DNA of 64,000 bases from Chlorella sorokiniana (taxonomy: Eukaryota > Chlorophyta > Trebouxiophyceae > Chlorellales > Chlorellaceae), in contig CP084610.1 in the NCBI GenBank assembly GCA_025917655.1, positions 62,001-126,000 of the forward strand, in the 5' to 3' direction. Both the position numbers and the translations under genes were made by a program. The stretch's first letter is position 1. Each line of letters opens with the position of its first letter. This document shows, one piece after another, positions 22,901 to 49,003 of the stretch. The notes beneath the pieces were generated by a model. The model was not told where the DNA came from. It made no database searches and saw only the letters and a list, made by a program, of their open reading frames with translations.

Positions 22901-23760
22901 TCCGCCCACACATGCACCCCCTCCGTCGCCACCACCGCCGCAGCCCGCCCGAAGGATGGAGCCACGCCGCCCGCCACCCCGCTGCACCCGCCAGCCGCAC
23001 CTTCACCGCCAGCGGTACGTTCCTGCTGTACCCCACGTACTGCAGGTTCCTCTTGTCGTCGTACAGCGCATACACGCCCACCTGCGGCACAGGCAGCAGG
23101 ACATGCGCAGGGCGGCTGAGGGCGGCGTTGAAGGGACAGGAGAGCGAGGCACCGCGCCCATAGAAGCCTCCCCGCGCACTCAGCACAGCTGCAGCATGCA
23201 GGCACGCGTGCAGCCTGGCGCAGACAGCCCAGGGGGAGGTGAGAGCTGGGAGGCGGTGGCACACTGGGTCGCACCGGCTTCTCGCCCTCACGGGACGACA
23301 CGTACCGCTCCACCTCCAGCAGCGTACTGCCATCGTCCTCTCCCTGAGCGTGCACAGCATGCAGGAGGATGGTAAAGACCACGGGCCATGCTGCTGAGGC
23401 AGCGCGCTGGCTGAGGCCAAGGCATCTGCCTGGGCGGCGCCAGCGGCGGCAGGGGCTGGGGCGCCGCACCTCACGGAACAAGTACCGGCGGCCGCCCTCC
23501 TCGTGCGCCTCTGCGCCGCCGTCGCCGTACAGGAACCCGTGCAGGCCCTGGTGGCCCTCTGGCACCGCGCCGTCTGTCACAGGGCCAGCCGGGGTGGGCG
23601 TGCTGCTGCCTGCCGCCGCCACCCGGCGGAGCGCACGCCGCCGCCCAGGCACTGGCTGGCAGGGCGGGCAGGCGCTGGGACGGCGACAGGAGCCTAATAT
23701 GCGTGTAACAGCTTGTGTCGCGGAGCTGTGCCGGCCGGCACCCACCGCTGTGGCGCTCAT
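19948..23760 (-). CDS. NFU: Plastid NFU-type iron-sulfur scaffold protein with an N-terminal GIY-YIG-like domain
   Basis: NFU proteins assemble and hand over Fe-S clusters. Exons: 23760-23470, 23343-23275, 23081-23001, 22587-22449, 22166-22046, 21849-21715, 21454-21165, 20879-20778, 20475-20358, 20084-19948. The Arg/Ser/Ala-rich N-terminus suggests a plastid transit peptide. A GIY-YIG-like domain follows (GVYALYDDKRNLQYVGYSRN, then ALQREADNWLAEAGAVPPGN), closest to that of plant glutaredoxin S16. After charged helices comes the NFU domain: VDRALDDVRPYLIADGGNVE, then GACGTCPSSSATMKMGIER with the CxxC that binds the cluster. A second, degenerate NFU-like domain without CxxC follows (YKGPEAIGYGLRAALRDKFP), ending DPDTEEPIKFQ. 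Exon sizes fit exactly through most of the gene. Single-base frame changes fall near 22110, in exon 21454-21165, in a C run near 20404-20408 and near 20010, and look like sequence errors. Confidence 0.85.
22590..22720. repeat. GGGT-rich simple repeat in an intron of the NFU gene
   Basis: Runs of GTGGGTGGG between the exons 23081-23001 and 22587-22449. On the transcribed strand this is CCCA-rich. Simple intronic repeat with quadruplex potential. Confidence 0.65.
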
Positions 23761-28373: not shown

Positions 28374-31300
28374 ATGTCCCTTAGGCGCCGGGGAGTCCTG
28401 CAGCCTGGGAACGTTTCAGGCCTCGCCCTGCTTGTCCTCTTGGTGGCCCTGTCGGGCCCTTGTGCCTCAGTAGGGCGCGCAAGCGATGATAGATCGCCGA
28501 TAGGCCAGGTGAGGCCACCCGTGCAGCTGATGACGCTGTGGCTAGGAGGGCGTCCGCGGCCTCCTGCCGCCCACAAGGGCGTGGAAGACCCCGCAGAATG
28601 CCTGGCTGGCATGCTGAAATCTTCCTTCGGGGCCTGTCGCAGGTGGAGCTCCCCCTCTGCCTGCCGCAGCCATCCGTCCCGCCGCCAACTCCCGCGGCGA
28701 CAACGGCCACGCCAGGCGCGGGCCCGAGCCTCCGCCCTACCTACGCCGCCTGCTGCAGAGCGGCGGCAGCGATTTGCCGGGCGAGCAGGCAGCTGCTGAC
28801 GGGCGCAGCAGCCGCAAGTGCCCGTCATCCTGGCTGTCGCCCCCGGCAGCCAGGCAGTGGCGGTCAACGCCAGCTCGGGCGCATCATCGATGCAGCAGGG
28901 GTCAACACCACGCGCTGCATCCGCTACGCCCCAGGCTTCGACGCCAGCGCGGGCGCCGCACAGAGCGGCAGCAGCGGCGGCAGCGGCGGCGAGGGCGGCG
29001 GCAGCGGGGGCCGACCGCCGCTCGACCTTTTCGGGGTGCGCGGCGGCGCAGCTGGTGGTGGCATCCTCGACCCAAGCCATCACGATACAGGTGGGCCGGG
29101 GTGCAAGCCTGCTGCTCTTGCTTGGAGCAGCTGAGCGAGCCGAGGCACACAGCTTTGGGGGTTCCAAGCCAAGGGGCCGTTGCCTGGTGCAGCACGCGGG
29201 CACCCCGCGCTGCCAGGCCGTCGGCGGCGGCGGGGGCGGGCACATCACCGGGCGGGGTCGCTTGCGGCTGCCCTGGTGCTGGCCCCCATCCTCATACAAC
29301 ACCCTGCGTGCAGGTGCGCGTGAATGCGCTGGTGGGCAGCCTGGCAGCGGATGACGTGGAGGCGGACGCGTGCGCTGTGCAGTCGGTGGGGCCCCCTACA
29401 TCCAAGGCGCCTTCCAGGTCTTTGAGGTGGGCGCCGCCGCGGCTGCTCCTTGCTCCCGCATGCGTTTTGGGCGGGGGGAACCAGGCAGCACGCGGTGTGT
29501 GCCATGGGCATGTGCTTGCGCTGTGGGTTGCCCTCCCCCGCTGGCTCCCCCCGCGTCCCGCGCTCCCCTGCCGTGCGTTGCTGGAGCCCCTGATGAGCTG
29601 AGAGGATGAGTAACTCGCGCCCGTTCGTGCCCCCCAGAAAATAAAGAACAAACGCAAGCACACTCCTCCTGCCCCCGCTTCAGGTTGAGGTGGAGATGGA
29701 GGAGGCCAACCTGCCGTGCAGCCTGAGGGTGGCGCCGGGCCGCTTGGACGGTGCGGCGGCTGCCGCCGCCGCTTGCCGCCCCCTGCACCGTCCTGCCAGT
29801 GCAGAGAGACCTGCCCCGCTTCCAGCCGACCCCTTTGCTGAATGGCAAGCATTCCTTCTGCGCCTGCAGACCGTGCAGGGGAGGCGACGGCGGGCAGCAA
29901 CAGCCTGGTGGCGGTGTGGGACACGCAGGCGCCGCAGCCTGCCATCTCCACCGTGGGCAAGTACGCGACCACCGACGAGCGGCGCATCCCGCTGCTCATC
30001 GACTTTGGGAGCGCGTGCTGCAGCTCAACCCGCTGCGCCTCTTCACGGCGGAAGGGTTCACCCGGTGCGCCGCTGACGCAACCATGTGTTGCTTGCAGAC
30101 TGCGAGCCACCTGCCTTCCAATCCCTTCCATCCGCCTTGCACTCACCCTTTCCACCATTTGGTACTGCTGTGCACCGCAGCATGGATGTGATGTATGAGG
30201 TCCTGGAGGGCCGAATCTACATCATCGGCACCATCGCCGACCCCGAGCAGGCCGTCATTGTCACCGGTAAGGGCCAGCACTGAGCTGCGGGGGCGGGCGC
30301 CGCGCAGCCTCCGGTTCCCTGGCAGCCGCTGCATGGCAGCAGGGGCCGAGCAGTGTGCGCCGCCGGTTCATGTGCTTTTGTGGCGCCGCAGGCGCTGCGT
30401 CCTTGTCAGCTGGCCACCCAGACGCCGGTGTGGGCACGTGCACCCTCCCGACCCAATTCCCACCCCTTACGCCCACACACTCTCACCACCCCACGCAGTC
30501 TCCGTGGCCGAGGGCGTCACCACCGACATCATGGGCAACCCCAACGCCGCCGCCAGCTTCAGCCTCGTCTACCTGCCCAACAACACTGCGGCGGAGGGGC
30601 TGGGCAACTTCATGAGGTGAGCGGCCGACTGCTGCTGATGTTGCTGCAACTGAGAAGGGAGCTGAGGCCTTGAAGCGGGCCTGTGCCTGCAGCCACCATG
30701 GCTGCTGCCGCCGCTGCTGCCGCAGCTGCTTCCCTGGCCCTTGCCGCTGCTCGCCACAAAGGCTGCTGCTGCTGGAACCGGGGTGCTGCCAGCTGTCCGC
30801 AGGGTTCAGGCAGCCGACATGCAGGGCCTATGGTGGCTCCTGCTCCCTGCTGTCTTTACTTCGTGCAAACCGGCCTGTGTGTTGCCCTCCCGTCCGCTGT
30901 CCCCCTCCGCCTGTGCCTTACGTTGCCTTTGCCCCCCCTGCAGCGCCGTGTTTGCCACCTCCAGCGGCACTTTCTTCGCGGGCACCATGCTGGTCAACAT
31001 GCTCACCCCGCTCCGCATCTGTGAGCGCGCCACGCCCGCTGCGCCGCAGCTTGGGCCCCTGCTCGTTGTGCTGTTGCCCCTGCGGGTTGTGTCCTGCTGC
31101 AAGCTTCCAGCGGCAAGCGCCCCCTGCCGTCTTTAGCAGCGAGCCCCCCCCCCCCCGCTGTTCCTCCTTTCTGCAGACCCCACGGGCAACAACCTGGGCG
31201 TGATGGTGGGAAGCGTGCAGATGGTGTACCTGGCGGGGCAGCTCAGCGTACCGCAGCTTCCCCTCAACTTCCGGCAGGCCGCCGCGCAGCTTGGCTACAT

Positions 31301-34300
31301 CACCCTCGACTTCCCGTGAGCCGCCGCCCCAGCCTCTGCTTTCCACCCCTGCCCCGCCGCTGCCGCAAAGCCCGGCTGCATGCCTGTGCCGGGCACCCGC
31401 CACATGCTTGCCGGCCTCTTGCCGCTGGCGCGGCGCAGCCCCTCTCCCGGAGTCGCCTGATGTTTCGTGCCGCCCTCCCCGTGCCGCCCGCAGGTCTCCA
31501 GTGACGAGCGGCGGCGGCGCTCGGCCGGCGGCAGGGAGGTGGATTCGGGCGGCGACGGCGACGCGTCAGCCACCCTGCGCGCCCTGATGGAGGGTGAGCT
31601 GGCGGGGCCCCTAGTAGTGTGTGCGTGTGTGCTTGGCGCGGGCTGGTGTGGGTGCGGGTGGGTGGTTGCGATGGCCGCAGGGGTTTGCTTGATGTGTGGA
31701 TGCTTGTGTTGGGCGGGCGGTGGAAGCGTGGTTGGTTGGGCGGGCGGGCGGAAGAACCGCGGTTGGTTGGGCGGGTGGGCGGTGGAAGCGTGGCGCAAGG
31801 AAGTAGCCTGCAGCTGGGCTTCCTGGCTCAGCGTCCAGCTGGCCGCCCTGCCGCCGCGCCCCAGCGGCCCTCCAAGCCTCCAGCTGCCCTTGCGGCCTGG
31901 CTGCTTGCCACCGGGCCCACATGCCGATGCGACGGTGCTGGCCTGACGTGCCCGCTGCACTCCCCTCCGACCCGCCCGCGCTGGCCCACGCCCCCACGCG
32001 TGTGCCACCCCTGCAGAGCTGGTGGCCTTCCCCACCTTGCCGCTGGGCGTGCTGTCCCTCAGCGACAACGAGGTTCTGCTGTTCGACCTGGGAGGGAGGG
32101 GGCGCTGCCGGCGGCCTGGACCGCTCGCCGCTGGTCAACGGTGAGGCCCCGCTTCCTTTGCGCCATGTGTTCAAGGCTTGCTTGCAAGGGTTGTGTTCGG
32201 GCCTTTGAAAAGCAAAGACTGGAAGCCAGGCACCCTGCGTCGCCAGCTCAAGCGGCTGGCGGCCAGCTGCGGCGCCTCGGCCATCGTGCCCCGCTGCGGC
32301 TTCGGGACGCGCTGCAACATCACTTGCAAGCAGCGGCTGCACCCAGCTGACACGGCGTGCCTGCGATGCTGTCTGCAGGAGAAACAAACAGCACGCAGGC
32401 TGAGGCGCAGGCCGTCGCGCAGCCGCCACCTGCGCTCGATGAGCCGGCGGCGCCGCCGCCGCCGGCCCCAGACGCACCGTTTCCGCCCCCGCAGCCCGAC
32501 CCGCCGCCCGCTCCTGGCCCTCCTCCCAGCCCCGAGCCTCCACCGAGCCCTGTGGCAGCCCCAAGCCCTCCGCCGCCGCCAGACGCGGCCGACCTGTCGA
32601 CGGCAGAGGAGGGCTCCCCTCCGCCGCCGCCTGCCCAGGAGGCAGCGCCGCAGCCCAGCCCCCACCGGCTGTGGCCGACGCAAGCCCCCCGCCGCCAGCG
32701 GACCAACCCAGCCCCCTCCGCCTGCGGTTGAGCCAGAGCTGCCGCCGCCGCCAGCGGACCAACCCAGCCCTCCTGCGCCAGCGGACCAACCCAGCCCCCT
32801 CTGCCTGCGGCTGATCCAAGCCCGCCGCCGCCAGCGGATGCGCCCAGCCCGTCGCCGCCAGCGCTGCTGCTCAGCCCGCCGCCGCCAGCAGTGCTGCTCA
32901 ACCCGCCGCCGCCAGCAGTGCTGCTCAGCCCACCGCTTCCTGCTGCGGTGGAGCTCAGCCCCGCCTCCCCTTGTTGTTGAAGAAGCTAGCCCGCCCCCTC
33001 CGGCAGCGCAGCCCGGCGTGCCCCCGCCCCCGCCCGCTGTGGTCTCCAGCCCGCCTCCGCCTGTCGCAACCCCAGGTGCACCCCAGAAGCCCTGGCCCAA
33101 CAGACCGGTTGCCTGAGCCCCTTCCTCTCCACCCTGCTGTGGCTGCCCCGCCTGGCTGGCGTTGCCACAGCGCTTGCCCCCTACCCATGACGTCCGCTTC
33201 CCCCTTGTACCGGCCCATTGTACCTGCAGTCCCGCGGTACAGCGTGGGCGGCCGCGGCGGCTTCTACTACGTGAACGACGCCAACGAGCTGTTCCTGTAC
33301 CACCGCGGGAACATAGTGGGCCCTGCCAGCCTGGACAGCCTGTACCGCCAAGAGTTTGGCGGCACCGCCAGCACCGCCGCCCGCCGCCGCCTGCGCCAGG
33401 CTGTGCAGGACGCCGCCGCTCTGACCATCGTGTCTTGCGACACCGACGCCGTCACCCTGTGGCTGGTGCTGGGCAGTGGGTGGGTGGTGCTTCCCGCTGA
33501 GCTTGGTTTGTTGTGCTGTCTGTTCCTTTGTTTTTGTTGCTTAGGGCGGGCTGTCGCCGGCCGGCCCCGCCTGTGCCCGCGCCGCCGCTGCGGCTGCTTC
33601 GCCGGAGAGCCCTGCCGCACTCCCTCCCTTCCGTCCCTTCTGCCTTGCTCCTGCGCCGCTGCCCGTCCGCCACCTTGCACAGCCGCCCTCGCGGCCGGCT
33701 GGTGCCGCTGGCTGCCCCTCTTGTCGCCGCATCGGCAGCGAGTGACAGCCTGCAGCCTCGCCGCCCCAATCCGCCCTTGCTGCCTCCTGTGCAGGCGTGT
33801 GTACTCCTTTGCCCTGCAAGGCGACGGCAGCTGGGTCCCCAAGCCCAGCCTGTTCCCCTCCAGCGTGGTGTCAGTGGGCGACAGCGGTGCGCTGCATTCA
33901 TCTTGTGTCAAGTTCATGCCGCGTTGCTGCTGGCTGCTCCTGCCCCTCCTGTGGCTGGCTGCGCTGCCCTGGCCAGCACTGCTCACTCGGCGGCCTTCCT
34001 CCTTCCTTTATTTCACCTGGCGGCCTGCTGCTGCTGCCGCCGCTGCCGATGCAGGGCTGGTGTACACACTCAATGCGGGCGGGAGCGTATTGCGGCAGCA
34101 CCAAGACGGCACCGGCAGCACCAGAGAGTGAGTGGGCTGGGCCTGGCGGTTGGTTTTCTGCAGGGGCATGCTGTGGTCGTGCTGCGCCGTGCCCTGCCGC
34201 GTGCGCTGTGCAGCCGCCGACGGCCCGGCGGCGCCTGACGCACACCCCGCTGCTGCGGCGGCAATTCCCGCCTGCCGCAGGTGGCCCCTGCCCCCGGCGG

Positions 34301-37300
34301 CTGCGACGACCTGTCTGAAAGCCGCGACGGCGCGCGCGTGGCGGCCGTGTGCGGCAGCACCCTCTACCTGCTGGGCACTGCTGCGGCGGGCGGCGCCTTT
34401 GTGCAGCTGCTGGGGGGCCTGCTCCTCCGCCTTTTGACGACGCCGGCAACCTGTGGGTGTCCCGTGCTGCGGTGAGTCCAGGGCCGCTGACGCTCTGCAG
34501 CGGGGTGCGCCTACGACTGCCCCCACCACCTGGCTGTGTGCTCCTGGCAAGCCCGCCTGCGCATGCGTGACGTGGCTCAGCTCTGCACCGCCTTACTGCC
34601 CCCCCCGGCCCCCGCTCAAGCTGCACTCGCTCCACTTCGCCGCGCCGCTGCCCTCCTCGCTGCAGGGCGGCGCCTGCGCCGGCATCAACTTCGTGAGACC
34701 CGCCGAGCAGGCGGCCCGTCTGGCGGGCGGAGGCGCCACCACGGCGGCTGTCGACGCCAGGTGGGGCTGCTGCACTCACCACTGCGCGGATGCTGCCGCC
34801 CTGGCTTGCCTCTGCCCTCCGCCTGGCCCCCAGCCGTCGCCCCCTCCCAGCACCGCCTCTGCCTGCCTCTCCACCACACACATACGTAAACACACAGCCT
34901 GTCAGCCCTTCCGCCGTATCCCTGCTGCCGCCGTGTGGCCCGCGTGGTGGCGCGCACACACACGCACACGCACACACAATATGCACACACACTCACACAC
35001 TTGCACACACTTGCACACAGTCTGACATCCATCTCCTCCTCCCTCTATGCACATGCAGCCAGCAGAGCTGCACCCTGATTGATGCGGCGGCGGTGCTGGA
35101 GGGTCGATTCTCAACAGTGTACTGCTGGAATGCAGCCGAGCGGCAGCTGCAGAGTGAGCTTCCAGCTGTTGGGAGTGGGGGCCTTGCTGCCCGACACTGG
35201 GCTGGCAGGGGAATGAGGGGAAGGAGGAGGGCTGGGTGGAGGAGGAAAGGGTCTTCGCAGGCTGGGTGGCGGAGGACAGGTGTGTGTGTGTGTGTGAGAA
35301 GGCGGCGCGGGGGGGTGCTTGGCTGTCTTATAATCATGGTTCTGAGCAGCGCTGCAGCCCCTCCAGCGCGGATGCCCTGCAAGGGGTCTTCCCAGCATTG
35401 CTTGACCCACCGCCGCCGGGCGCTGACCCTGCCGCAGCATTCACCTTGGACACCGCTCCGTCGTCTCCGCCACCCCGCGGCCGCCCTTGTTTGAAGGCAG
35501 CTTGGCCCGCCCGCCTCCCACCCCCGTCCGAGTCCCCGCCGCCGCCTGCCCCTGCGCCGCAGCCACCCTCTCCTCCGCCTCCCAGCCCGCCCCCTACCTC
35601 TCCTCCACCACCCTCTCCCCAACCTCCCTCTCCCCCTCCGCCATTCCCGCCACCACCCAGCCCACCTCCACCCAGCCCCTTACCTCCCAGCCCTCCACCC
35701 CCAAGCCCGCCTCCTCCCTCTCCTCCACCCCCAAGCCCACCTCCTCCCAGCCCGCCTCCTCCCAGCCCGCCCCCTCCCTCTCCGCCACCACCCAGCCCGC
35801 CTCCACCCTCTCCTCCGCCACCCAGCCCGGCCCCTCCCTCTCCTCCGCCACCCAGCCCCCACCTCCGGCCCCTCCTCCTCTCCTCCGCTACCCAGCCCGC
35901 CACCCCAAGCCCGCCTCCTCCCTCTCCTCCACCACCCCGCCACCCAGCCCTCCACCCAGCCCGCCTCCACCTAGCCCCCCACCTCCTCCCCGCCACCCCC
36001 AAGCCCGCCTCCGCCCTCCCCTCCTCCACCCAGCCCGCCTCCACCTAGCCCCCCCCACCTCCCTCCCCGCCACCCCCAAGCCCGCCTCCGCCCTCCCCTC
36101 CACCTCCCAGCCCGCCTCCACCCAGCCCGCCTCCACCTCTCCCCCGCCACCCAGCCCACCACCCCCAAGCCCGCCTCCGCCCAGCCCGCCTCCACCCAGC
36201 CCCCACCACCCTCTCCTCCACCACCCCTGCCACCCAGCCCACCACCAACCAGCCCGACTCCACCTAGCCCCCACCTCCCTCCCCGCCACCCCCAAGCCCG
36301 CCTCCGCCCTCTCCCCCGCCACCCAGCCCACCACCTCCCTCCCCTCCACCTCCCTCACCGCCACCACCCAGCCCGCCTCCACCTAGCGCCCCACCTCCCT
36401 CCCCGCCACCCCCAAGCCCGCCTCCCCCTCTCCGCCACCTCCCTCCCCTCCACCTCCCTCACCGCCTCCACCCAGCCCGCCTCCACCCAGCCCCCCCACC
36501 TCCCTCCCTGCCACCCCCAAGCCCGCCTCCACCCTCCCCTCCTCCTCCCAGCCCGCCTCCACCCAGCCCGCCTCCACCCACCCCGCCACCTCCCTCTCCC
36601 CGCCACCCAGCCCACCACCTCCTAGCCCTCCCCCAAGCCCCCCACCTCCCTCCCCGCCACCCCCAAGCCCGCCTCCCTCTCCACCTCCACCCAGCCCCCG
36701 CCACCCAGCCCTCCACCACCTAGCCCCCACCTCCCTCCCCGCCACCCCGAGCCCTCCACCTCCCTCTCCGCCACCGCCCAGTCCTCCTCCACCCAGCCCG
36801 CCACCTCCCAGCCCTCCACCACCCAGCCCGCCTCCTCCCAGCCCACCACCTCCCTCACCTCCACCACCCAGTCCTCCTCCACCCAGCCCACCACCTCCCT
36901 CTCCTCCACCACCCCCGCCACCCAGCCCACCACCACCCAGCCCGCCTCCACCTAGCCCCCCACCTCCCTCCCCGCCACCCCCAAGCCCGCCTCCACCCAG
37001 TCCTCCTCCACCCAGCCCACCACCCCCAAGCCCTCCACCACCCAGCCCGCCTCCTCCCTCTCCGCCACCCCCCAAACCCGCCTCCTCCCTCTCCCCCGCC
37101 ACCCAGCCCTCCACCACCCAGTCCGCCTCCACCTAGCCCGCCACCACCCAGCCCACCTCCTCCCTCTCCGCGTCCACCCAGCCCTCCACCACCCAGTCCG
37201 CCTCCACCTAGCCCGCCACCACCCAGCCCACCTCCTCCCTCTCCGCGTCCACCCAGCCCACCACCCCCAAGCCCTCCACCACCCAGCCCGCCTCCTCCCT

Positions 37301-40300
37301 CTCCGCCTCCACCCAGCCCGCCTCCACCCAGTCCTCCTCCACCCAGCCCCCACCTCCCTCCCCGCCACCCCCAAGCCCGCCTCCACCCTCCCCTCCTCCT
37401 CCCAGCCCGCCTCCACCCAGCCCGCCTCCACCCTCTCCGCCACCTCCCTCTCCCCCGCCACCCAGCCCACCACCTCCTAGCCCTCCCCCAAGCCCCCCAC
37501 CTCCCTCCCCCGCCACCCCCAAGCCCGCCTCCCCCTAGCCCTCCACCCCCAAGCCCGCCTCCTCCCTCTCCCCGCCACCCAGCCCTCCACCACCCAGTCC
37601 GCCTCCACCTAGCCCGCCACCACCCAGCCCACCTCCTCCCTCTCCGCCTCCACCAGCCCACCACCCCCAAGTCCTCCACCACCCAGCCCGCCTCCTCCCT
37701 CTCCGCCTCCACCCAGCCCGCCACCTCCTAGCCCTCCCCCAAGCCCCCTACTCCTCCCCGCCACCCCCAAGCCCGCCTCCCCCTAGCCCTCCACCCCCAA
37801 GCCCGCCTCCTCCCTCTCCCCCGCCACCCAGCCCTCCACCACCCAGTCCGCCTCCACCTAGCCCGCCACCACCCAGCCCACCTCCTCTCTCTCCACCTCC
37901 ACCCAGCCCACCACCCCCAAGCCCTCCACCACCCAGCCCGCCTCCTCCCACTCCGCCTCCACCCAGCCCACCACCCCCAAGCCCTCCACCACCCAGCCCG
38001 CCTCCTCCCTCTCCGCCTCCACCCAGCCCGCCTCCACCCAGTCCTCCTCCACCCAGCCCCCACCTCCCTCTCCTCCACCACCCCCGCCACCCAGCCCACC
38101 ACCACCCAGCCCGCCTCCACCTAGCCCCACACCTCCCTCCCCGCCACCCCCAAGCCCGCCTCCACCCTCCCCTCCTCCTCCCAGCCCGCCTCCACCCAGC
38201 CCGCCTCCACCCTCTCCGCCACCTCCTCTCCCCCGCCACCCAGCCCACCACCTCCTAGCCCTCCCCCAAGCCCACCTCCTCCCCTCTCCGCCTCCACCCA
38301 ACCCACCACCCCCAAGCCCTCCACCACCCAGCCCGCCTCCTCCCTCTCCGCCTCCACCCAGCCCGCCTCCACCCAGTCCTCCTCCACCCAGCCCCCATCT
38401 CCTCCCCGCCACCACCCCCGCCACCCAGCCCACCACCACCCAGCCCGCCTCCACCTAGCCCCCACCTCCCTCCCCGCCACCCCCAAGCCCGCCTCCACCC
38501 TCCCCCTCCTCCTCCCAGCCCGCCTCCACCCAGCCCGCCTCCACCCTCTCCGCCACCTCCCTCTCCCCGCCACCCAGCCCGCCTCCTCCCTCTCCGCCTC
38601 CACCCAGCCCGCCTCCACCCAGTCCTCCACCCACCCAGCCCCCACCTCCCTCCCCGCCACCACCCCCGCCACCCAGCCCACCACCACCCAGCCCGCCTCC
38701 ACCTAGCCCCCACCTCCCTCCCCGCCACCCCCAAGCCCGCCTCCACCCTCCCCTCCTCCTCCCAGCCCGCCTCCACCCAGCCCGCCTCCACCCTCTCCGC
38801 CACCTCCCTCTCCCCCGCCACCCTCTCCGCCACCTCCCTCTCCCCGCCACCCAGCCCGCCTCCTCCCTCTCCGCCTCCACCCAGCCCGCCTCCACCCAGT
38901 CCTCCTCCACCCAGCCCCCCACCTCCCTCCCCGCCACCACCCAGCCCGCCTCCACCCTCCCCTCCTCCTCCCAGCCCGCCTCCACCCAGCCCGCCTCCAC
39001 CCTCTCCGCCACCTCCCTCTCCCCCGCCACCCAGCCCACCACCTCCAAGCCCTCCCCCAAGCCCCCACCTCCCTCCCCGCCACCCCCAAGCCCGCCTCCC
39101 CTAGCCCTCCACCCCAAAGCCCGCCTCCTCCCCTCTCCCCGCCACCCAGCCCACCACCACCCAGCCCGCCTCCACCTAGCCCCCCACCTCCTCCCCGCCA
39201 CCCCCAAGCCCGCCTCCTCCCTCTCCCCCGCCACCCAGCCCACCACCACCCTCCCCTCCACCTCCCTCCCCGCCACCCCCAAGCCCGCCTCCTCCTTCTC
39301 CCCCGCCACCCAGCCCACCACCTCCCAGCCCTCCACCACCAAGTCCTCCTCCACCCAGCCCGCCTCCTCCCTCTCCGCCACCACCCAGTCCTCCACCACC
39401 CAGTCCTCCTCCACCCAGCCCACCACCTCCCTCACCTCCACCACCCCCGCCACCCAGCCCACCACCACCCAGCCCGCTCTCCACCTAGCCCCCCACCTCC
39501 CTCCCCGCCACCCCCAAGCCCGCCTCCTCCCTCTCCCCCGCCACCCAGCCCACCACCACCCTCCCCTCCACCTCCCTCCCCGCCACCCCCAAGCCCGCCT
39601 CCTCCTCTCCCCCGCCACCCAACCCTCCACCACCCAGTCCGCCTCCACCTAGCCCGCCACCACCCAGCCCACCTCCTCCCTCTCCGCCTCCACCCAGCCC
39701 ACCACCCCCAAGCCCACCACCACCCAGCCCGCCTCCACCTAGCCCCCACCTCCCTCCCCGCCACCCCCAAGCCCGCCTCCTCCCTCTCCCCCGCCACCCA
39801 GCCCACCACCACCCTCCCCTCCACCTCCCTCCCCGCCACCCCCAAGCCCGCCTCCTCCCTCTCCCCCGCCACCCAACCCTCCACCACCCAGTCCGCCTCC
39901 ACCTAGCCCGCCACCACCCAGCCCACCTCCTCCCTCTCCGCCTCCACCCAGCCCACCACCACCCAGCCCGCCTCCACCTAGCCCCCCACCTCCTCCCCGC
40001 CACCCCCAAGCCCGCCTCCTCCCTCTCCCCCGCCACCCAGCCCTCCACCACCCAGTCCGCCTCCACCTAGCCCGCCACCACCCAGCCCACCTCCTCCCTC
40101 TCAGCCTCCACCCAGCCCACCACCTCCCTCCCCGCCACCCCCAAGCCCGCCTCCTCCCTCTCCCCTGCCACCCAGCCCTCCACCACCCAGTCCGCCTCCA
40201 CCTAGCCCGCCACCACCCAGCCCACCTCCTCCCTCTCCGCCTCCACCCAGCCCACCACCTCCTAGCCCTCCCCCCAAGCCCCCACCTCCCTCCCCGCCAC

Positions 40301-43300
40301 CCCCTAGCCCTCCTCCCCCTAGCCCTCCACCCCCAAGCCCGCCTCCTCCCTCTCCCCGCCACCCAGCCCGCCTCCACCTAGCCCCCACCTCCCTCCCCGC
40401 CACCCCCAAGCCCGCCTCCTCCCTCTCCCCCGCCACCCAGCCCACCACCACCCTCCCTCCACCTCCCTCCCCGCCACCCCCAAGCCCGCCTCCTCCTTCT
40501 CCCCCGCCACCCAGCCCACCACCTCCCAGCCCTCCACCACCAAGTCCTCCTCCACCCAGCCCGCCTCCTCCCTCTCCGCCACCACCCAGTCCTCCACCAC
40601 CCAGTCCTCCTCCACCCAGCCCACCACCTCCCTCACCTCCACCACCCCCGCCACCCAGCCCACCACCACCCAGCCCGCCTCCACCTAGCCCCCACCTCCT
40701 CCCCGCCACCCCCAAGCCCGCCTCCCCTAGCCCTCCACCCCCAAGCCCGCCTCCTCCCTCTCCCCCCGCCACCCAGCCCTCCACCACCCAGTCCGCCTCC
40801 ACCTAGCCCGCCACCACCCAGCCCACCTCCTCCCTCTCCACCTCCACCCAGCCCACCACCCCCAAGCCCACCACCACCCAGCCCGCCTCCACCTAGCCCC
40901 CCACCTCCCTCCCCGCCACCCCCAAGCCCGCCTCCTCCCTCTCCCCGCCACCCAACCCTCCACCACCCAGTCCGCCTCCACCTAGCCCGCCACCACCCAG
41001 CCCACCTCCTCCCTCTCCCCCGCCACCCAGCCCACCACCACCCTCCCCTCCACCTCCCTCCCCGCCACCCCCAAGCCCGCCTCCTCCCTCTCCCCCGCCA
41101 CCCAACCCTCCACCACCCAGTCCGCCTCCACCTAGCCCGCCACCACCCAGCCCACCTCCTCCCTCTCCACCTCCACCCAGCCCACCACCCCCAAGCCCTC
41201 CACCACCCAGCCCGCCTCCTCCCTCTCCGCCTCCACCCAGCCCGCCTCCACCCAGTCCTCCTCCACCCAGCCCCCACCTCCCTCCCCGCCACCCCCAAGC
41301 CCGCCTCCCCCTAGCCCTCCACCCCCAAGCCCGCCTCCTCCCTCTCCCCCGCCACCCAGCCCGCCTCCACCTAGCCCCCACCTCCCTCCCCGCCACCCCC
41401 AAGCCCGCCTCCTCCCTCTCCCCCCGCCACCCAGCCCACCACCACCCTCCCCTCCACCTCCCTCCCCGCCACCCCCAAGCCCGCCTCCTCCTTCTCCCCG
41501 CCACCCAGCCCACCACCTCCCAGCCCTCCACCACCAAGTCCTCCTCCACCCAGCCCGCCTCCTCCCTCTCCCCCGCCACCCAACCCTCCACCACCCAGTC
41601 CGCCTCCACCTAGCCCGCCACCACCCAGCCCACCTCCTCCCTCTCCGCCTCCACCCAGCCCACCACCACCCTCCCCTCCACCTCCCTCCCCGCCACCCCC
41701 AAGCCCGCCTCCTCCTTCTCCCCCGCCACCCAGCCCACCACCTCCCAGCCCTCCACCACCAAGTCCTCCTCCACCCAGCCCGCCTCCTCCCTCTCCGCCT
41801 CCACCCAGCCCACCACCCCCAAGCCCACCACCACCCAGCCCGCCTCCACCTAGCCCCCACCTCCCTCCCCGCCACCCCCAAGCCCGCCTCCTCCCTCTCC
41901 CCCGCCACCCAGCCCACCACCACCCTCCCTCCACCTCCCTCCCCGCCACCCCCAAGCCCGCCTCCTCCCTCTCCCCCGCCACCCAGCCCACCACCACCCC
42001 CCCTCCACCTCCCTCCCCGCCACCCCCAAGCCCGCCTCCTCCTTCTCCCCCGCCACCCAGCCCACCACCTCCCAGCCCTCCACCACCTAGCCCTCCACCC
42101 CCAAGCCCGCCTCCTCCCTCTCCCCCGCCACCCAGCCCACCACCACCCAGCCCGCCTCCACCTAGCCCCCACCTCCCTCCCCGCCACCCCCAAGCCCGCC
42201 TCCTCCCTCTCCCCCGCCACCCAGCCCACCACCACCCCCCCCTCCACCTCCCTCCCCGCCACCCCCAAGCCCGCCTCCTCCTTCTCCCCCGCCACCCAGC
42301 CCACCACCTCCCAGCCCTCCACCACCAAGTCCTCCTCCACCCAGCCCGCCTCCTCCCTCTCCGCCACCACCCAGTCCTCCACCACCCAGTCCTCCTCCAC
42401 CCAGCCCACCACCTCCCTCACCTCCACCACCCCCGCCACCCAGCCCACCACCACCCAGCCCGCCTCCACCTAGCCCCCACCTCCCTCCCCGCCACCCCCA
42501 AGCCCGCCTCCTCCTCTCTCCCCGCCACCCAGCCCACCACCACCCTCCCCTCCACCTCCCTCCCCGCCACCCCCAAGCCCGCCTCCTCCCTCTCCCCCGC
42601 CACCCAACCCTCCACCACCCAGTCCGCCTCCACCTAGCCCGCCACCACCCAGCCCACCTCCTCCCTCTCCGCCTCCACCCAGCCCACCACCCCCAAGCCC
42701 ACCACCACCCAGCCCGCCTCCACCTAGCCCCCACCTCCCTCCCCCGCCACCCCCAAGCCCGCCTCCTCCCTCTCCCCCGCCACCCAGCCCACCACCACCC
42801 TCCCCTCCACCTCCCTCCCCGCCACCCCCAAGCCCGCCTCCTCCCTCTCCCCCGCCACCCAACCCTCCACCACCCAGTCCGCCTCCACCTAGCCCGCCAC
42901 CACCCAGCCCACCTCCTCCTCTCCGCCTCCACCCAGCCCACCACCACCCAGCCCGCCTCCACCTAGCCCCCACCTCCCTCCCCGCCACCCCCAAGCCCGC
43001 CTCCTCCCTCTCCCCCGCCACCCAGCCCTCCACCACCCAGTCCGCCTCCACCTAGCCCGCCACCACCCAGCCCACCTCCTCCCTCTCAGCCTCCACCCAG
43101 CCCACCACCTCCCTCCCGCCACCCCCAAGCCCGCCTCCTCCCTCTCCCCTGCCACCCAGCCCTCCACCACCCAGTCCGCCTCCACCTAGCCCGCCACCAC
43201 CCAGCCCACCTCCTCCCTCTCCGCCTCCACCCAGCCCACCACCTCCTAGCCCTCCCCCAAGCCCCCCACCTCCCTCCCCCGCCACCCCCTAGCCCTCCTC

Positions 43301-46300
43301 CCCCTAGCCCTCCACCCCAAGCCCGCCTCCTCCCTCTCCCCGCCACCCAGCCCGCCTCCACCTAGCCCCCACCTCCCTCCCCGCCACCCCCAAGCCCGCC
43401 TCCTCCCCTCTCCCCCGCCACCCAGCCCACCACCACCCTCCCCTCCACCTCCCTCCCCGCCACCCCCAAGCCCGCCTCCTCCTTCTCCCCCGCCACCCAG
43501 CCCACCACCTCCCAGCCCTCCACCACCAAGTCCTCCTCCACCCAGCCCGCCTCCTCCCTCTCCGCCACCACCCAGTCCTCCACCACCCAGTCCTCCTCCA
43601 CCCAGCCCACCACCTCCCTCACCTCCACCACCCCGCCACCCAGCCCACCACCACCCAGCCCGCCTCCACCTAGCCCCCCACCTCCCTCCCCGCCACCCCC
43701 AAGCCCGCCTCCCCCTAGCCCTCCACCCCCAAGCCCGCCTCCTCCCTCTCCCCCGCCACCCAGCCCTCCACCACCCAGTCCGCCTCCACCTAGCCCGCCA
43801 CCACCCAGCCCACCTCCTCCCTCTCCACCTCCACCCAGCCCACCACCCCCAAGCCCACCACCACCCAGCCCGCCTCCACCTAGCCCCCACCTCCCTCCCC
43901 GCCACCCCCAAGCCCGCCTCCTCCCTCTCCCCGCCACCCAACCCTCCACCACCCAGTCCGCCTCCACCTAGCCCGCCACCACCCAGCCCACCTCCTCCCT
44001 CTCCCCCGCCACCCAGCCCACCACCACCCTCCCCTCCACCTCCCTCCCCGCCACCCCCAAGCCCGCCTCCTCCCTCTCCCCCGCCACCCAACCCTCCACC
44101 ACCCAGTCCGCCTCCACCTAGCCCGCCACCACCCAGCCCACCTCCTCCCTCTCCACCTCCACCCAGCCCACCACCCCCAAGCCCTCCACCACCCAGCCCG
44201 CCTCCTCCCTCTCCGCCTCCACCCAGCCCGCCTCCACCCAGTCCTCCTCCACCCAGCCCCCACCTCCCTCCCCGCCACCCCCAAGCCCGCCTCCCCTAGC
44301 CCTCCACCCCCAAGCCCGCCTCCTCCTCTCCCCGCCACCCAGCCCGCCTCCACCTAGCCCCCACCTCCCTCCCCGCCACCCCCAAGCCCGCCTCCTCCCT
44401 CTCCCCCGCCACCCAGCCCACCACCACCCTCCCCTCCACCTCCCTCCCCGCCACCCCCAAGCCCGCCTCCTCCTTCTCCCCCGCCACCCAGCCCACCACC
44501 TCCCAGCCCTCCACCACCAAGTCCTCCTCCACCCAGCCCGCCTCCTCCCTCTCCCCCGCCACCCAACCCTCCACCACCCAGTCCGCCTCCACCTAGCCCG
44601 CCACCACCCAGCCCACCTCCTCCCTCTCCGCCTCCACCCAGCCCACCACCCCCAAGCCCACCACCACCCAGCCCGCCTCCACCTAGCCCCCACCTCCCTC
44701 CCCGCCACCCCCAAGCCCGCCTCCTCCCCTCTCCCCGCCACCCAGCCCACCACCACCCTCCCCTCCACCTCCCTCCCCGCCACCCCCAAGCCCGCCTCCT
44801 CCCTCTCCCCCGCCACCCAACCCTCCACCACCCAGTCCGCCTCCACCTAGCCCGCCACCACCCAGCCCACCTCCTCCCTCTCCACCTCCACCCAGCCCAC
44901 CACCCCCAAGCCCTCCACCACCCAGCCCGCCTCCTCCCTCTCCGCATCCACCCAGCCCGCCTCCACCCACTCCTCCTCCACCCAGCCCCCACCTCCCTCC
45001 CTGCCACCACCCAGCCCACCTCCTCCCACTCCGCCTCCACCCAGCCCACCACCCCCAAGCCCACCACCACCCAGCCCGCCTCCACCCAGCCCCCACCTCC
45101 CTCCCCGCCACCCCCAAGCCCGCCCTCGCCGGCCGTGTTGTTGCGGCCATCGGCAGTCCTGTTTTCTGGCCTTTCCTTCACCGGCACCGGCCGTGAGTTT
45201 GGCGAGGGCCAGTTCTCGCCGTTGCCCTCCTACGGCTTCCAGCCCGGCACGCTGCGCAGCCTGCGTGTGCGGCCCGGCTGCACCGCCACCCTCACCGAAG
45301 CCAACGGCCCCCAGCCGCTGGTGCTGACGGAAGACGTGCCGGATTTGTTGCAGTACGGGTTCGACAACTCCGCAGCCTCGCTCATCGTGTCTTGCGGCCC
45401 ACCGCCCGTCAATGGAGTCACCGGCCGGCGGCGCTGCATGACGCGGCCAGCGGCGGCTGCGGCGGCGGGGGACGTGGAGCGCCGCCGCCCCTCCTCCGCC
45501 CAGCTCAACTCGCTGCTCCATGCCGAGTTCCGCGGGCAGCAGGGGCCCAAGCCGCAGCGCCGCCGCACCCTGCTGCAGCAGCAGGTCCTCGGCCCGGCGC
45601 CCCCGCCCCTACCGCCGCCACAGCTGGGCAACACACCGCCCCCCCCCCGCCGCCCATCCTGAGCCAGGAGCAGCTGAGCACGGTGGACAGCACAGGCGGT
45701 TCCATCTACGTGGTCGCCACCACTGGCCTGGAATTCAACCGGAGCGCGGCGGGTGGGTGGGCCCTCGATCACATTTGAGCTGCCAGTGCGCAGGCTACAC
45801 TCCAAAACACCGCGAGTGCCTCAGCGGGCGGACAGCACAGCAGTCACCTGTCGACGGGCTCGAGTGCAGCGGCCAGCTGGCAGGCTGGCGCCGCGGCATG
45901 CCCCGCCCCCCGTGCCTCCTCATCTGCCCCGGACCCCCTGCCCACCCCCTGTTCTGTGCAGTGAATGACATCCTGCCGGAGGCACTGGCCAGGCAGGTGG
46001 AGGGTATCGTGGGCCAGCTCAAGTCAGCCCTCAGCATCCAAGGATCGCCGCTGGACAGCCTGTGGAACACGCTGTTCTGGGTGTGCGTCGGCCTGGCGGC
46101 CACGGTGGCGCTGCACGCCGCCGCCCGCGCCCTCATCATCTGGCGCGGCTGGCGCATGCGCCAGTTCTTCGAGTGGCCGCGGCCCGAGCTGTGGCTCATG
46201 TGGTGTGTGCTGCCCATCCTGGCGGCGCAGGGCGCACGTGAGTGGGGGTTCAGGGCGAGGGGCGGCACATTAAACACACCCGCGCGCCTCGTCCGCCGCT

Positions 46301-49003
46301 TCTGAACAGCCTGCTTGCCATTTCTCCCTGGCGGCCCTCTTCGCAATGAGCGCAAACCATCAACCAACCCCCTGCAGAGTTCATTGTGGCCGACAGTGGC
46401 GGTGCGGTGGCTGCCGGCGTCGTTTTTGGCATCCTGCTGCCGACGGCACTGCTGGCTCTTTCTTTCTACCTGGTCATCAAGCACCTCACCATGGTGGTGA
46501 GCTGGCGGGGGCTGGCGCTGCCTGTGTTATGCACCATATGCAACACCACCGATGTTGCAGCTGCCGTGCTGCGCTGCCTGGGGTGCTCCGTGCTGATGCC
46601 ATCCCCTGCCATGCACCACGCACCACCGGTACCGCAGATTCCGCTGCGCCGCGCCGCCTACTTCCTGCCGGACGAGGAAGCCGAGCGGTCCCGCAAGGAG
46701 CAGCAGCTTGCAGCTGCCCCGCGGTCCCGGACAGCAGCAGCGCACAAGCGCCAGACAGCGCCAACGCCCCTGGAAGCAGCTCGGCGGGCGGCGACCCCGG
46801 GCCCTCCACCAGTGCCGCCGCCGCTGAGCTGGCAGCCGCTGAGCTGGCACGTGCCAGCGCGGGCGCCGCCTCCGACGCCTCCCGCTCCTCGGGCGCGGGC
46901 TCTTCCCTGGGCGCCCAGCTGCTGTGCCGCCGCTCCTGCCAGCATGGCGCCGACGCCGGCGATGATGGCTCTGCTGCGGCGGAAGCTGGGGCGGATGCCA
47001 CGCTGGCCCCCACCGCGTCCTCGCCTGCGCCGCCGCCTGAAGCGCGCCCTGGCGCGCTGGTTCGTTCAGCCGGTGTTTGGCTTCCACCCCTCCAAGCAAG
47101 GGGAGTGGGTGCCGCCGGATGGCTACGACGCCAGGTGTGAATCTCTGGCCCAGGCGCTGCCGGCTGCTGGGCGCACCTCACCCTGCGCCATTCAGCTGTC
47201 AGAAAGAAGCCGCACTTCCGTCCAACCTCCAGTCATTGACTTCTAGCAACCCTCCCCCTACACGTGCACACGCAGCTTTTTGGCCAAGTACGGCGTGCTG
47301 TTCGAGACATCCCGCGGCCCAGAAGTCAAGTACCGCCCGGGCACCTGGGAGGTGGACCCCGCACCGGCAGGGTGGACCGCGGGGAGCTGGTCCCGCTGGC
47401 CAGCACACGAGCGCTGCGGGCCCGGGAGGTGGCACGGGTGAGCTGCAGCAGACGTCGTGCTTTCTTTCGTCATAGCTTGGCAGCGCAGGCAGCATGTCTC
47501 TGCTTGAACACCCCAAACATACAATGCACCTGCTTAGCTTGCGTCTGCATTTTGCTGCTTCCCTCTCCTGCAGACGCTGGGCGTCACGGTGCAGCTGACC
47601 AAGCTGGTGCTCTTTGCCCAGCTGGCCGCCGTGTTTGGCGCCTCTGAGGCCATCAGCCCGCTGTGGCAGGTCGTGCCGCTGCTGGTGCTCATTGTCGTCT
47701 ACTGGGCCTACTTCCGCTTTTTTGTGCCCATGGCTTCGTTCGAGGACATGGTTACAGAGGTGAGGCCGCGATCATCGCCCTTTTCTTGCTTGCTTGTGTT
47801 GCGTGCGCGTACGGCGATGCCGGTTTGGCGGCTACCATCCTCCAACATTTCGAGGGGGAGCGGGAAGAGCAGGAGCTCCAGCCCGCACCGTCTGCCCTGC
47901 AGTCTCCACCCACCGCCCTTGCTTCCATCACTGCGCAGATCCTGGGCTGCGCCTGCGACCTGGGCACTTTTGTGTGCGGCGTGATCGTGGCCGTTGTGCC
48001 CGTCACCAGCTACCAAACCATGTGAGCTTTCCAGCCAGCACCGCATGGCAGCTGTCCCCTTGAGCACCTCGATCTCCCCAACCCGGATATGCCTGGCCGG
48101 CTGTGCGCTGCCCCGCTGCAGTCAGCTGCCACTCCTGCATGCCTGCCTGCTGTCGGCCCTGCCAGCCCTGGCTCCGACTGCAGCAGCGGCCCCTCCTGCC
48201 TCCTCTCACGATGGGCCCTCGTGCTCCCCCCCCCGCTGCAGCAGCACAACTGCGGCATCGCCATGCTGGTTTTCCAGACAGCAAACGTACTGGTCACAAT
48301 GGCCCCGGTGTGATCAAATTCCTGGGGATGGCCTGGCGATGGGCGTGGCGCAAGTTCTTCCCAGACCCCGCAGACCGCTTTGCGGCGGTGGTGCGGGCGG
48401 TGATGTCCCAGAACGAAAGCATCCTGGCCCGCAAGTACGCCGACCGCTGGCTGCTGCGGGTGCACGGCCGCGGGCTGAACGAGCGCGCGCTGTGCCACCA
48501 CGAAAGGCGCAGCAGCTGCTGCCCTTCGACCTGCGCGCGCTGCGCCCGCCCTCACCCGCATGCGCGCCTTTGGCGGCGGCAACCGCCGCCAGGGCATGGC
48601 CGCGGGCGCTGCCGCTGCAGCAGTGGCGGAGGTGGAGGCTGGTGGCGGCGGCTCCCACCCTGCTGAGGGCAGCGTCAGCGGGGGCCGTGGCAGGCCGCGG
48701 CTCACATCGCTCTTGTCCCGCCGTTTCAGCGGCGGCCTGCCACGCCAGCTCCCAGCTGGCCCGCTGCTGCCGATTTCCAGCCTTCAGAGCATGCCCAGCG
48801 ACGCTGCCCGCCGCCCCCAACCCCGTCGCCGGCAGTGCCCCGCCCACGCCCCGCTCGGGCAGTCTGCCCCCACCCCAGGCAGCAGCGTGCATGGTGGCGC
48901 TAGCGCCGCAGGCGGCGCTGGGAGCTGCCGCGGCGGGTCGGTGGTTGGCAGCGTGTCGCCCTCGTCTGCCGCCAGCCCGCTGCCCTCCCCCAAATCCTGG
49001 TAG
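28374..49003 (+). CDS. Giant multidomain surface protein: Ig-like, propeller-like, proline-rich rod, beta/gamma-crystallin-like, about seven membrane spans
   Basis: About 26 exons, roughly 5,150 residues if the frame is kept. Exon 1 (28374-28508) encodes a signal peptide (GLALLVLLVALSGPCAS). Exons 28643-29090, 29314-29426 and 29684-29728 give a conserved region with NTTRCIRYAPGF. Exons 29870-30064, 30181-30266 and 30499-30616 form an Ig-like domain with the bacterial-type VTTDIMGNPNAA signature. Exons 30944-31020, 31177-31316, 31494-31593 and 32017-32140 follow; 32379-33075 is a Pro-rich linker. Exons 33230-33479, 33794-33886, 34055-34127, 34281-34471, 34666-34760 and 35059-35153 look like propeller blades (GGFYYVNDANELFLY, GLVYTLNAGGSVL). 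Exon 35438-45752 encodes the rod and a beta/gamma-crystallin-like domain. Exons 45962-46237, 46378-46496, 46638-47134, 47276-47437, 47575-47759, 47939-48021 and 48242-49003 carry about seven hydrophobic spans. The stop at 49003 is the best estimate. Several frame changes occur, mostly in homopolymers. Confidence 0.75.
34954..35022. repeat. CA-rich microsatellite in an intron of the first giant gene
   Basis: (CACACA) units with CG and TTG interruptions, between exons 34666-34760 and 35059-35153. Simple repeat. Confidence 0.8.
35530..45125 (+). repeat. 9.6-kb (SPPPP)n coding array with higher-order repeats
   Basis: Almost pure C-rich sequence of short units such as CCACCCAGCCCGCCTCC, encoding SPPPPSPPPPSPPP on the plus strand. 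Such Ser-Hyp motifs are extensin-type glycosylation targets and form stiff rods. Longer units recur: a landmark containing acctccctcacctccaccac occurs at 39425, 40626, 42411 and 43612, spacings of 1201, 1785 and 1201 bases, so a block of about 2986 bases has been duplicated. No single frame stays SPPPP throughout. Long minus-strand frames rich in Gly or Trp here are shadows. Confidence 0.9.
45130..45420 (+). other. Beta/gamma-crystallin-like domain of the first giant protein
   Basis: Directly after the proline-rich rod, the frame reads FSGLSFTGTGREFGEG, YGFQPGTLRSLRVRPGC and YGFDNSAASLIVSCG. This follows the Greek-key pattern of beta/gamma-crystallins (aromatic-rich first strand, SL-V-PGC, then FDN-S). 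The DNSAAS motif departs from the Ca2+-site consensus [ND][ND]xx[ST]S at position five, so Ca2+ binding is doubtful in this copy. Confidence 0.6.
45962..49003 (+). other. C-terminal multi-span membrane region of the first giant protein
   Basis: Hydrophobic segments in order: LFWVCVGLAATVALHAAA; WLMWCVLPILAAQ; AAGVVFGILLPTALLALSFY; LTKLVLFAQLAAVFGA; VVPLLVLIVVYWAYFRFF; DLGTFVCGVIVAVVPV; IAMLVFQTANVLVTM. Between spans 3 and 4 lies a cytoplasmic-type basic loop ending in FGFHPSKQGEWVPPDGYDAR and FLAKYGVLFETSRGPEVKYR. The layout, a large extracellular N-terminus and then about seven spans, recalls TRP-like fungal Flc/Pkd2 proteins, but that is a guess from layout only. The Ser/Gly-rich tail would be cytoplasmic. 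Confidence 0.65.

What the first reader, a model, noticed from the sequence alone, without database searches (positions are those of the whole stretch)
28374..49003. Giant putative wall-to-membrane linker with an unusual domain order
Sequence shows a signal peptide, a Cys-containing N-terminal region, a bacterial-type Ig-like domain (VTTDIMGNPNAA), propeller-like exons, an exon of about 10.3 kb coding a proline-rich rod of about 3,200 residues, a beta/gamma-crystallin-like domain, and about seven membrane spans with a basic loop and tail. Hydroxyproline-rich rods are established wall components in green algae. A rod this long joined to a multi-span membrane domain suggests a tether or force sensor between wall and plasma membrane; that function is inference. 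I do not know this architecture from any described family.
Basis: partly seen in the sequence, partly recalled or inferred. Interest (0 to 1): 0.8.

Follow-up and report, generated by a model that had tools for sequence, protein, structure and literature searches.

The report
Giant algal rod protein with membrane anchor
A green alga appears to carry a gene for a huge surface protein in which a very long, stiff, sugar-coatable proline rod links an outer head to a membrane domain; proteins of this general kind are already described, so it is an unusual variant rather than something wholly new.

Summary
The finding is real in outline, but the rod is not open as deposited: from 35.6 to 45.1 kb all three forward frames carry stops, and a Pro/Ser reading needs 67 frame jumps. 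The breaks look like sequencing or assembly indels in C-runs: two 2.46-kb rod copies differ by 1 substitution but 27 one-base indels, 25 of them C. In the hopping frame 3,061 of 3,119 codons are Pro/Ser while Pro third bases vary. A tandem paralogue starting near 49.9 kb has the same order Ig-type module, propeller-like exons, linker, SPPP stretch, beta/gamma-crystallin, which supports one gene. The crystallin domain is supported by fold. The C-terminus has seven spans, N-out/C-in, but matches no Pfam channel family. The kind is described: MST3 (PMC11015965), and TRP-family proteins with hydroxyproline-rich ectodomains proposed as wall-stress transducers (PMC6704257). At PPII rise the rod would be about 1 micrometre, which fits a hair or stalk better than a simple wall-spanning tether. 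New variant of a known kind; function inferred.

The parts
28374..28508 (+). first coding exon: start codon and signal-peptide-like segment, ending at donor CAG|gtgaggcc (chosen by hand)
   Evidence: sequence; hydropathy peak 2.9 over 13 residues; donor
28858..29750 (+). Cys-containing N-terminal exons (about 28858-29035, 29314-29426, 29684-29750), with apparent one-base breaks
   Evidence: decoder; paralogue matches near 50.4 kb
29879..31315 (+). Ig-like module and conserved segment (exons 29879-30064, 30181-30266, 30499-30616, 30944-31020, 31177-31315)
   Evidence: 96% protein identity to gene B; dN/dS about 0.33 from few changes; no Pfam hit
32351..33113 (+). first, shorter Pro-rich stretch (PPPPADQPSPP-like), frame-broken; not called by the decoder
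   Evidence: stop-to-stop ORFs; tandem repeats 32683-32936
33230..35153 (+). propeller-like exons (33230-33479, 33795-33873, 34281-34471, 34666-34760, 35059-35153; one more blade-like piece near 34.06 kb added by hand)
   Evidence: 51% identity to gene B; Pfam Gmad1 E=0.036, below cut-off
35438..45752 (+). proposed long exon: linker, (SPPPP)n rod at 35646-45124, crystallin domain and linker; frame-broken as deposited; start chosen by hand from the linker shared with gene B
39192..44639 (+). two near-identical rod copies, 39192-41656 and 42178-44639
   Evidence: 1 substitution and 27 one-base indels in 2477 aligned columns
45126..45413 (+). beta/gamma-crystallin domain without a canonical Ca2+ motif
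   Evidence: AlphaFold2 model, best PDB match 1nps Protein S E=3.7e-4; motif scan
45962..46496 (+). membrane exons with spans 1-3 (45962-46237, 46378-46496)
46638..47440 (+). exons of the basic cytosolic loop between spans 3 and 4; joins uncertain
47574..48480 (+). membrane exons with spans 4-7 (47574-47759, 47939-48021, and an exon the decoder runs from 48184 to a stop at 48478; I start it near 48235), one apparent break near 48312
48481..49003 (+). possible low-complexity cytosolic tail to the TAG at 49001-49003; the decoder stops at 48478, so this extension is by hand and frame-uncertain
   Evidence: stop-to-stop ORF 48479-49003
49935..64000 (+). gene B, tandem paralogue with its own start and signal-like segment (start by hand; decoder starts at 50315) and no stop before the window ends; could be more than one gene

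Best explanation
One nuclear gene (28374 to about 49003, + strand) of a green alga encodes a secreted, membrane-anchored giant HRGP. From the distal end it has a small Cys/Ig-like/propeller-like head, a (Ser-Pro4)n rod of roughly 3,100 residues, a juxtamembrane beta/gamma-crystallin domain and a seven-span membrane domain with a basic cytosolic loop and tail. The rod should be hydroxylated and glycosylated into a stiff polyproline-II stalk (inferred from PMC11015965) and hold the head up to about 1 micrometre from the membrane. The likeliest job is a long-reach surface tether or sensor: the head binds wall, matrix, another filament or another cell, and the stalk passes tension to the membrane domain, which signals or conducts. 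Shown here: rod composition, domain order along the DNA, crystallin fold, span count and topology. Inferred: single transcript, intact rod, PPII state, force transmission, signalling.
For: Pro/Ser in 3,061 of 3,119 codons with Pro third bases A835/C644/T629/G359: selection on the protein. Frame breaks explained by C-run length errors. No donor-like GT: 49 of 49 GT in the rod are GTCC. Rod frame reads into the crystallin domain. Same order in gene B. Crystallin by fold. Seven spans and positive-inside topology, N-out/C-in. 23 of 24 exon segments have exactly one frame with a positive coding score; 32017-32140 has none (segments were chosen by the same decoder or by hand and the score was trained on many of them, so this is a consistency check). 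Printed precedents: MST3, TRP-family proteins with Hyp-rich ectodomains.
Against: As deposited the rod has 67 frame jumps and the N- and C-terminal exons have more. The decoder did not call the first exon, the rod exon or the tail as I draw them, and put most of gene B's SPPP stretches in introns. No transcript data. The membrane domain has no Pfam or PDB relative, so channel or receptor function is untested. A straight 1-micrometre stalk seems too long for a simple wall-spanning tether. Rod length may be inflated: the two near-identical copies could be one, duplicated in assembly.
Confidence: 0.5

Rival explanations
1. Mastigoneme-type or other ciliary/surface hair core: the rod is the axial stalk of an external filament anchored by a channel-like membrane domain, as MST3 is.
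For: Rod length of about 967 nm at 133 nm per 429 residues (ratio from PMC11015965) is close to the ~800 nm mastigoneme. Same overall order: secreted N-terminus, poly-Pro stalk, C-terminal membrane domain.
Against: No P13/P11(XXP)3 repeats: longest P-run 9, XXP x3 count 0. No PKD_channel hit and seven spans. No C-type lectin hit in the one N-terminal piece scanned (protein 1, E<=1).
Confidence: 0.2
2. Head-stalk adhesin (agglutinin-like) for cell-cell or surface contact, with the membrane domain only an anchor.
For: Distal head on a very long HRGP stalk; neighbouring gene B varies rods and crystallin repeats, as expected of a recognition family.
Against: The agglutinin comparison is recalled (one search was a listing only); no sequence test was possible. 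A seven-span domain with a large basic loop is more than an anchor needs.
Confidence: 0.15
3. Broken gene: the frame breaks are real, and only the N-terminal head with a short rod, or nothing, is made.
For: Stops in all forward frames; 5 of 13 and 5 of 15 jumps coincide between the two rod copies, or 6 of 15 and 6 of 16 at lower jump penalties; an apparent break at the same place in genes A and B near 28880 and 50456, and at matching places in two gene B crystallin blocks (57556/62688, 57657/62789).
Against: 27 one-base indels against 1 substitution between copies. Pro/Ser identity held while third positions vary. Ig module dN/dS about 0.33 (only 10 synonymous and 10 nonsynonymous changes).
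Confidence: 0.1
4. Assembly join: two different rod-bearing genes were fused through the repeat.
For: Rods occur at several places in the window, so the repeat could mis-join.
Against: Gene B repeats the order propeller - linker - SPPP - crystallin in shorter form; the crystallin-to-membrane link lies outside the repeat.
Confidence: 0.1

Closest known systems
MST3 of Chlamydomonas reinhardtii (Cre06.g309951), mastigoneme axial protein, PMC11015965
   Same: Giant secreted protein with hundreds of nanometres of poly(hydroxyproline) and a C-terminal membrane domain; N-terminus distal
   Different: MST3 has a poly-Pro N-terminus, C-type lectins, 42 P13/P11(XXP)3 repeats and an incomplete PKD domain proposed to be completed by SIP; here a nearly uniform SPPPP rod, Ig/propeller-like head, crystallin domain and seven spans with no PKD match
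C. reinhardtii TRP-family proteins with extracellular hydroxyproline-rich domains (PMC6704257 discussion, passages only)
   Same: Surface membrane proteins with Hyp-rich ectodomains, proposed to transduce wall stress like yeast Wsc1/Mid2
   Different: Membrane domain here is not recognised as TRP or PKD by Pfam; the lengths of their Hyp-rich domains were not checked
Protein S type beta/gamma-crystallins (PF00030)
   Same: Fold of the 45.13-45.41 kb domain; a gene B segment matches Protein S at E=8.3e-13
   Different: Gene A's domain lacks the (N/D)(N/D)xx(S/T)S motif that gene B's segments keep
Extensin and pherophorin SPPPP rods of plants and volvocine algae (recalled; extensin repeat also in the abstract of PMC4769139)
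   Same: Ser-Pro3-5 repeat composition
   Different: No pherophorin domain hit in the pieces scanned; joined to a membrane domain

Membership tests
MST3-type mastigoneme axial protein | P13...P11(XXP)3 repeats | tested here: not met
   longest P-run 9, XXP x3 count 0 in the hopping translation
MST3-type mastigoneme axial protein | incomplete PKD2-like membrane domain | tested here: not met
   no PKD_channel hit at E<=1 or E<=10 (filters drop most hits above 0.1); seven spans and a ~160-aa loop; sequence level only
MST3-type mastigoneme axial protein | association with SIP and PKD2 | not testable with these tools
   no interaction data; organism unnamed
TRP/Flc-like channel (PF06011) | TRP profile match | tested here: inconclusive
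   no hit, but the query is one hand-joined, frame-bridged sequence and remote homology could be missed
TRP/Flc-like channel (PF06011) | ion conduction | not testable with these tools
   needs electrophysiology
beta/gamma-crystallin | double Greek-key fold | tested here: met
   model mean pLDDT 66, 24 of 96 residues below 50; ranks 1-20 in PDB are beta/gamma-crystallin-fold proteins, best 1nps E=3.7e-4, the only match below 0.001; a GH29 fucosidase is rank 21
beta/gamma-crystallin | PF00030 profile score above cut-off | tested here: not met
   gene A 12.9 bits against 25 (E=0.12); the gene B segment at 61.5-62.3 kb has 36.5, the one at 57.5 kb 22.2
beta/gamma-crystallin | Ca2+ motif (N/D)(N/D)xx(S/T)S (motif recalled) | tested here: not met
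   0 in gene A's domain; 2 in each of three gene B segments
SPPPP hydroxyproline-rich rod | Ser-Pro repeats over long stretches | tested here: met
   500 SPPPP units; 3,061 of 3,119 codons Pro/Ser, on the frame-hopping path
SPPPP hydroxyproline-rich rod | hydroxylation and glycosylation | not testable with these tools
   needs mass spectrometry
Bacterial-type Ig-like domain | profile match | tested here: not met
   0 Pfam families for the Ig pieces of A and B up to E=10 (proteins 1-2); only a 12.1-bit PDB hit of no meaning

The most novel reading that the evidence does not exclude
A previously undescribed seven-span surface receptor or channel family of green algae carries a continuous, nearly pure SPPPP stalk of about 1 micrometre between a sensory head and a juxtamembrane crystallin domain, in effect a single-molecule feeler whose length evolves by tandem duplication of rod blocks while a tandem paralogue keeps the same head on a short stalk.
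Probability: 0.25. Interest if true: 0.65.

Novelty: new variant of a known kind. Interest (0 to 1): 0.42.

Why it matters
If the rod is intact, a uniform HRGP stalk of about 3,100 residues is built into a multi-span membrane protein, and a long/short stalk pair in one locus (gene A and gene B) would allow testing how stalk length affects sensing or adhesion. It also gives a caution: in this assembly SPPPP rods break into short ORFs, so automated annotation could split or lose such genes.

Tried and rejected
Introns as the cause of the rod's frame jumps: rejected, 49 of 49 GT in the rod are GTCC. Neutral satellite decay: rejected, Pro third positions are mixed while amino acids hold. PKD or TRP membership by Pfam, and PDB relatives of the membrane domain: nothing above noise. 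Relatives elsewhere: two scans of viral contigs with membrane-domain pieces and one of genome contigs with the Ig-module alignment matched 23, 24 and 18 stretches by pattern and confirmed none; these are viral and prokaryotic collections, so the absence means little. TGTAA as poly(A) signal: 14 matches against 11 expected, uninformative. My first rod self-alignment compared overlapping stretches and was discarded; an over-wide alignment (137 mismatches and 87 gaps over 4,101 columns, including non-homologous ends) was replaced by the core, whose ends I chose from it. That gene B's rod and crystallin lie in one open exon: not borne out; those ORFs are frame-broken. I recalled, but could not test, that other green algal proteins share a similar membrane domain; I do not rely on it.

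Full report
Observation. The window is GC-rich, about 62-76% in 2-kb steps, with spliced genes and several SPPP rods; it is most likely a green algal nuclear genome (inference; no whole genome is held). From 35646 to 45124 a 15-base tandem repeat runs for about 640 copies. It is not an open exon: all three forward frames have stops throughout and the longest stop-to-stop ORF inside is 445 aa. A path that favours Pro/Ser and pays for frame changes reads 3,119 codons, of which 2,467 are Pro and 594 Ser, with 67 jumps, 52 of them equivalent to one missing base and 15 to one extra base.

Are the breaks real? Three results say mostly not. First, Pro third bases are A835, C644, T629, G359 while the amino acid hardly changes, so the rod was under protein-level selection. 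Second, two rod copies of 2.46 kb differ by one substitution and 27 one-base indels, 25 of C and 2 of T; 17 of the 27 are C4/C5 or C5/C6 run-length differences, and after homopolymer compression only three two-base differences remain. That ratio is expected of homopolymer errors and not of ordinary mutation. Third, of 13 and 15 jumps in the two copies only 5 coincide (6 of 15 and 16 at lower jump penalties), so most breaks are private. Against this, some do coincide, and breaks at the same place recur in genes A and B (28880/50456) and in two gene B crystallin blocks (57556/62688, 57657/62789), which needs either a context-dependent error or real events. Outside the rod the decoder proposed, on the + strand, 17 missing and 3 extra bases and none in the two multi-exon genes; on the - strand 8 missing and 1 extra. 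I added the one at 28880 by hand. One search printed 18 missing-base sites that I picked; many lie beside G or C runs. Introns are excluded as a general cause because 49 of 49 GT in the rod are GTCC. As a control, ten 5th-order Markov sequences need 100-136 jumps and score 1405-1588, against 67 and 2438; twenty 1st-order sequences score -89 to 76 with 39-58 jumps.

Gene model. A frameshift-tolerant decoder trained on hand-chosen exons of this gene gives most exons listed under parts. By hand I added the first exon (28374-28508), the rod exon with its start at 35438, and the tail from 48479 to the TAG at 49001-49003; the decoder itself stops at 48478. The first exon carries a hydrophobic signal-like segment. 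Downstream a second gene, B, has its own start and signal-like segment at 49935 (by hand; decoder start 50315) and no stop before the window ends. A and B share the Ig-type module at 96% identity over about 202 residues and the propeller-like region at 51%. After the propeller both have a similar linker, FTLDTAPSSPPP in A and FPLDSEPASPPP in B, opening into SPPP sequence. In B a short SPPP stretch at about 57.0-57.5 kb is followed by crystallin domains, but it too is frame-broken and the decoder put most of it in an intron. In A the last rod frame continues without a jump into the crystallin domain, and a 209-base intron leads to the membrane exons. So one gene is the better reading, though only cDNA can show it. 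A versus B over 6 matched Ig-module segments gives 10 synonymous changes in 149.5 sites and 10 nonsynonymous in 441.5, dN/dS about 0.33; one propeller segment gives 0.57.

Domains. The crystallin claim holds by fold: gene A's domain (mean pLDDT 66, two-sequence alignment) has beta/gamma-crystallin-fold proteins at PDB ranks 1-20, best Protein S N-domain 1nps at E=3.7e-4, the only match below 0.001 of 367 up to E=10. Gene B's segment at 61.5-62.3 kb passes Pfam's PF00030 cut-off, 36.5 against 25 bits, and matches Protein S at 8.3e-13. Gene A's own sequence alone is weak: PF00030 12.9 bits, below a 16-bit match to an unrelated family; it resembles gene B's 62880-63167 at 32% (E=1.6e-5). The usual calcium motif is absent in A and present twice in each of three B segments. 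The Ig label has no profile support, and the propeller label only a sub-threshold hit. The membrane part shows ten hydrophobic windows that merge into seven segments; loop charges put the N-terminus outside and the C-terminus inside, with 32 K/R in a loop of about 160 residues after span 3, a loop whose exon joins are uncertain. Pfam and PDB sequence searches give nothing meaningful for it.

Mechanism. PMC11015965 (outline, sections 12, 13, 14 and 39, and found passages) reports that dense Pro stretches in MST3 form glycosylated PPII filaments, 429 residues giving a theoretical 133 nm, and proposes that MST3's membrane domain, with SIP and PKD2, anchors the hair. By that ratio the present rod would be about 967 nm. 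[quoted passage not shown] I therefore favour a free-standing long stalk carrying a head, joined to a membrane domain that anchors and probably signals. PMC6704257 (passages only) already suggests that C. reinhardtii TRP-family proteins with Hyp-rich ectodomains may transduce wall stress in the way of Wsc1 and Mid2. The tether or force-sensor idea is thus a printed hypothesis for the kind, not shown for this gene.

Known or new. Not MST3: its repeats and PKD-type domain were tested at sequence level and not met. Not assignable to TRP/Flc or PKD by sequence. The combination of Ig/propeller-like head, micrometre SPPPP rod, crystallin domain and seven spans did not show in the listings of the nine paper searches made; these cover only open-licence papers, most listings were capped, and asked about sequencing errors instead. 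I rate it a new variant of a known kind. The main limits are the unnamed organism, no algal relatives in the collections, no transcripts, and an assembly whose indels make rod length and the N- and C-terminal frames uncertain; the two near-identical rod copies could be an assembly duplication, which would shorten the rod by about 3 kb.

Noticed in passing
13900-18633 (- strand): Gene with a signal-like start, one diverged and four nearly identical Cys-rich domains of about 125 residues separated by SPPP rods; no Pfam hit for the domain.
   Followed up: partly
24261-25685 (+ strand): Hedgehog-type Hint module, Pfam PF01079 E=1.5e-30, upstream of the gene in question.
   Followed up: partly
20400-23500 (- strand): NifU-like domain (PF01106 E=7.2e-23) apparently joined to a GIY-YIG-like N-terminus (E=0.056, below cut-off).
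   Followed up: partly
4707-6660 (+ strand): Small protein with DUF4149 (PF13664 E=9.9e-25), decoded without any frame break.
   Followed up: partly
57453-64000 (+ strand): Gene B alternates short SPPP stretches, crystallin domains with calcium motifs and an unassigned repeat; crystallin blocks at 57.5 and 62.6 kb are near-duplicates with apparent breaks at two matching places.
   Followed up: partly
53913-54356 (+ strand): Regular 60-base repeat coding PSPELSPDVVV-like units in gene B, unlike the SPPPP rods.
   Followed up: no
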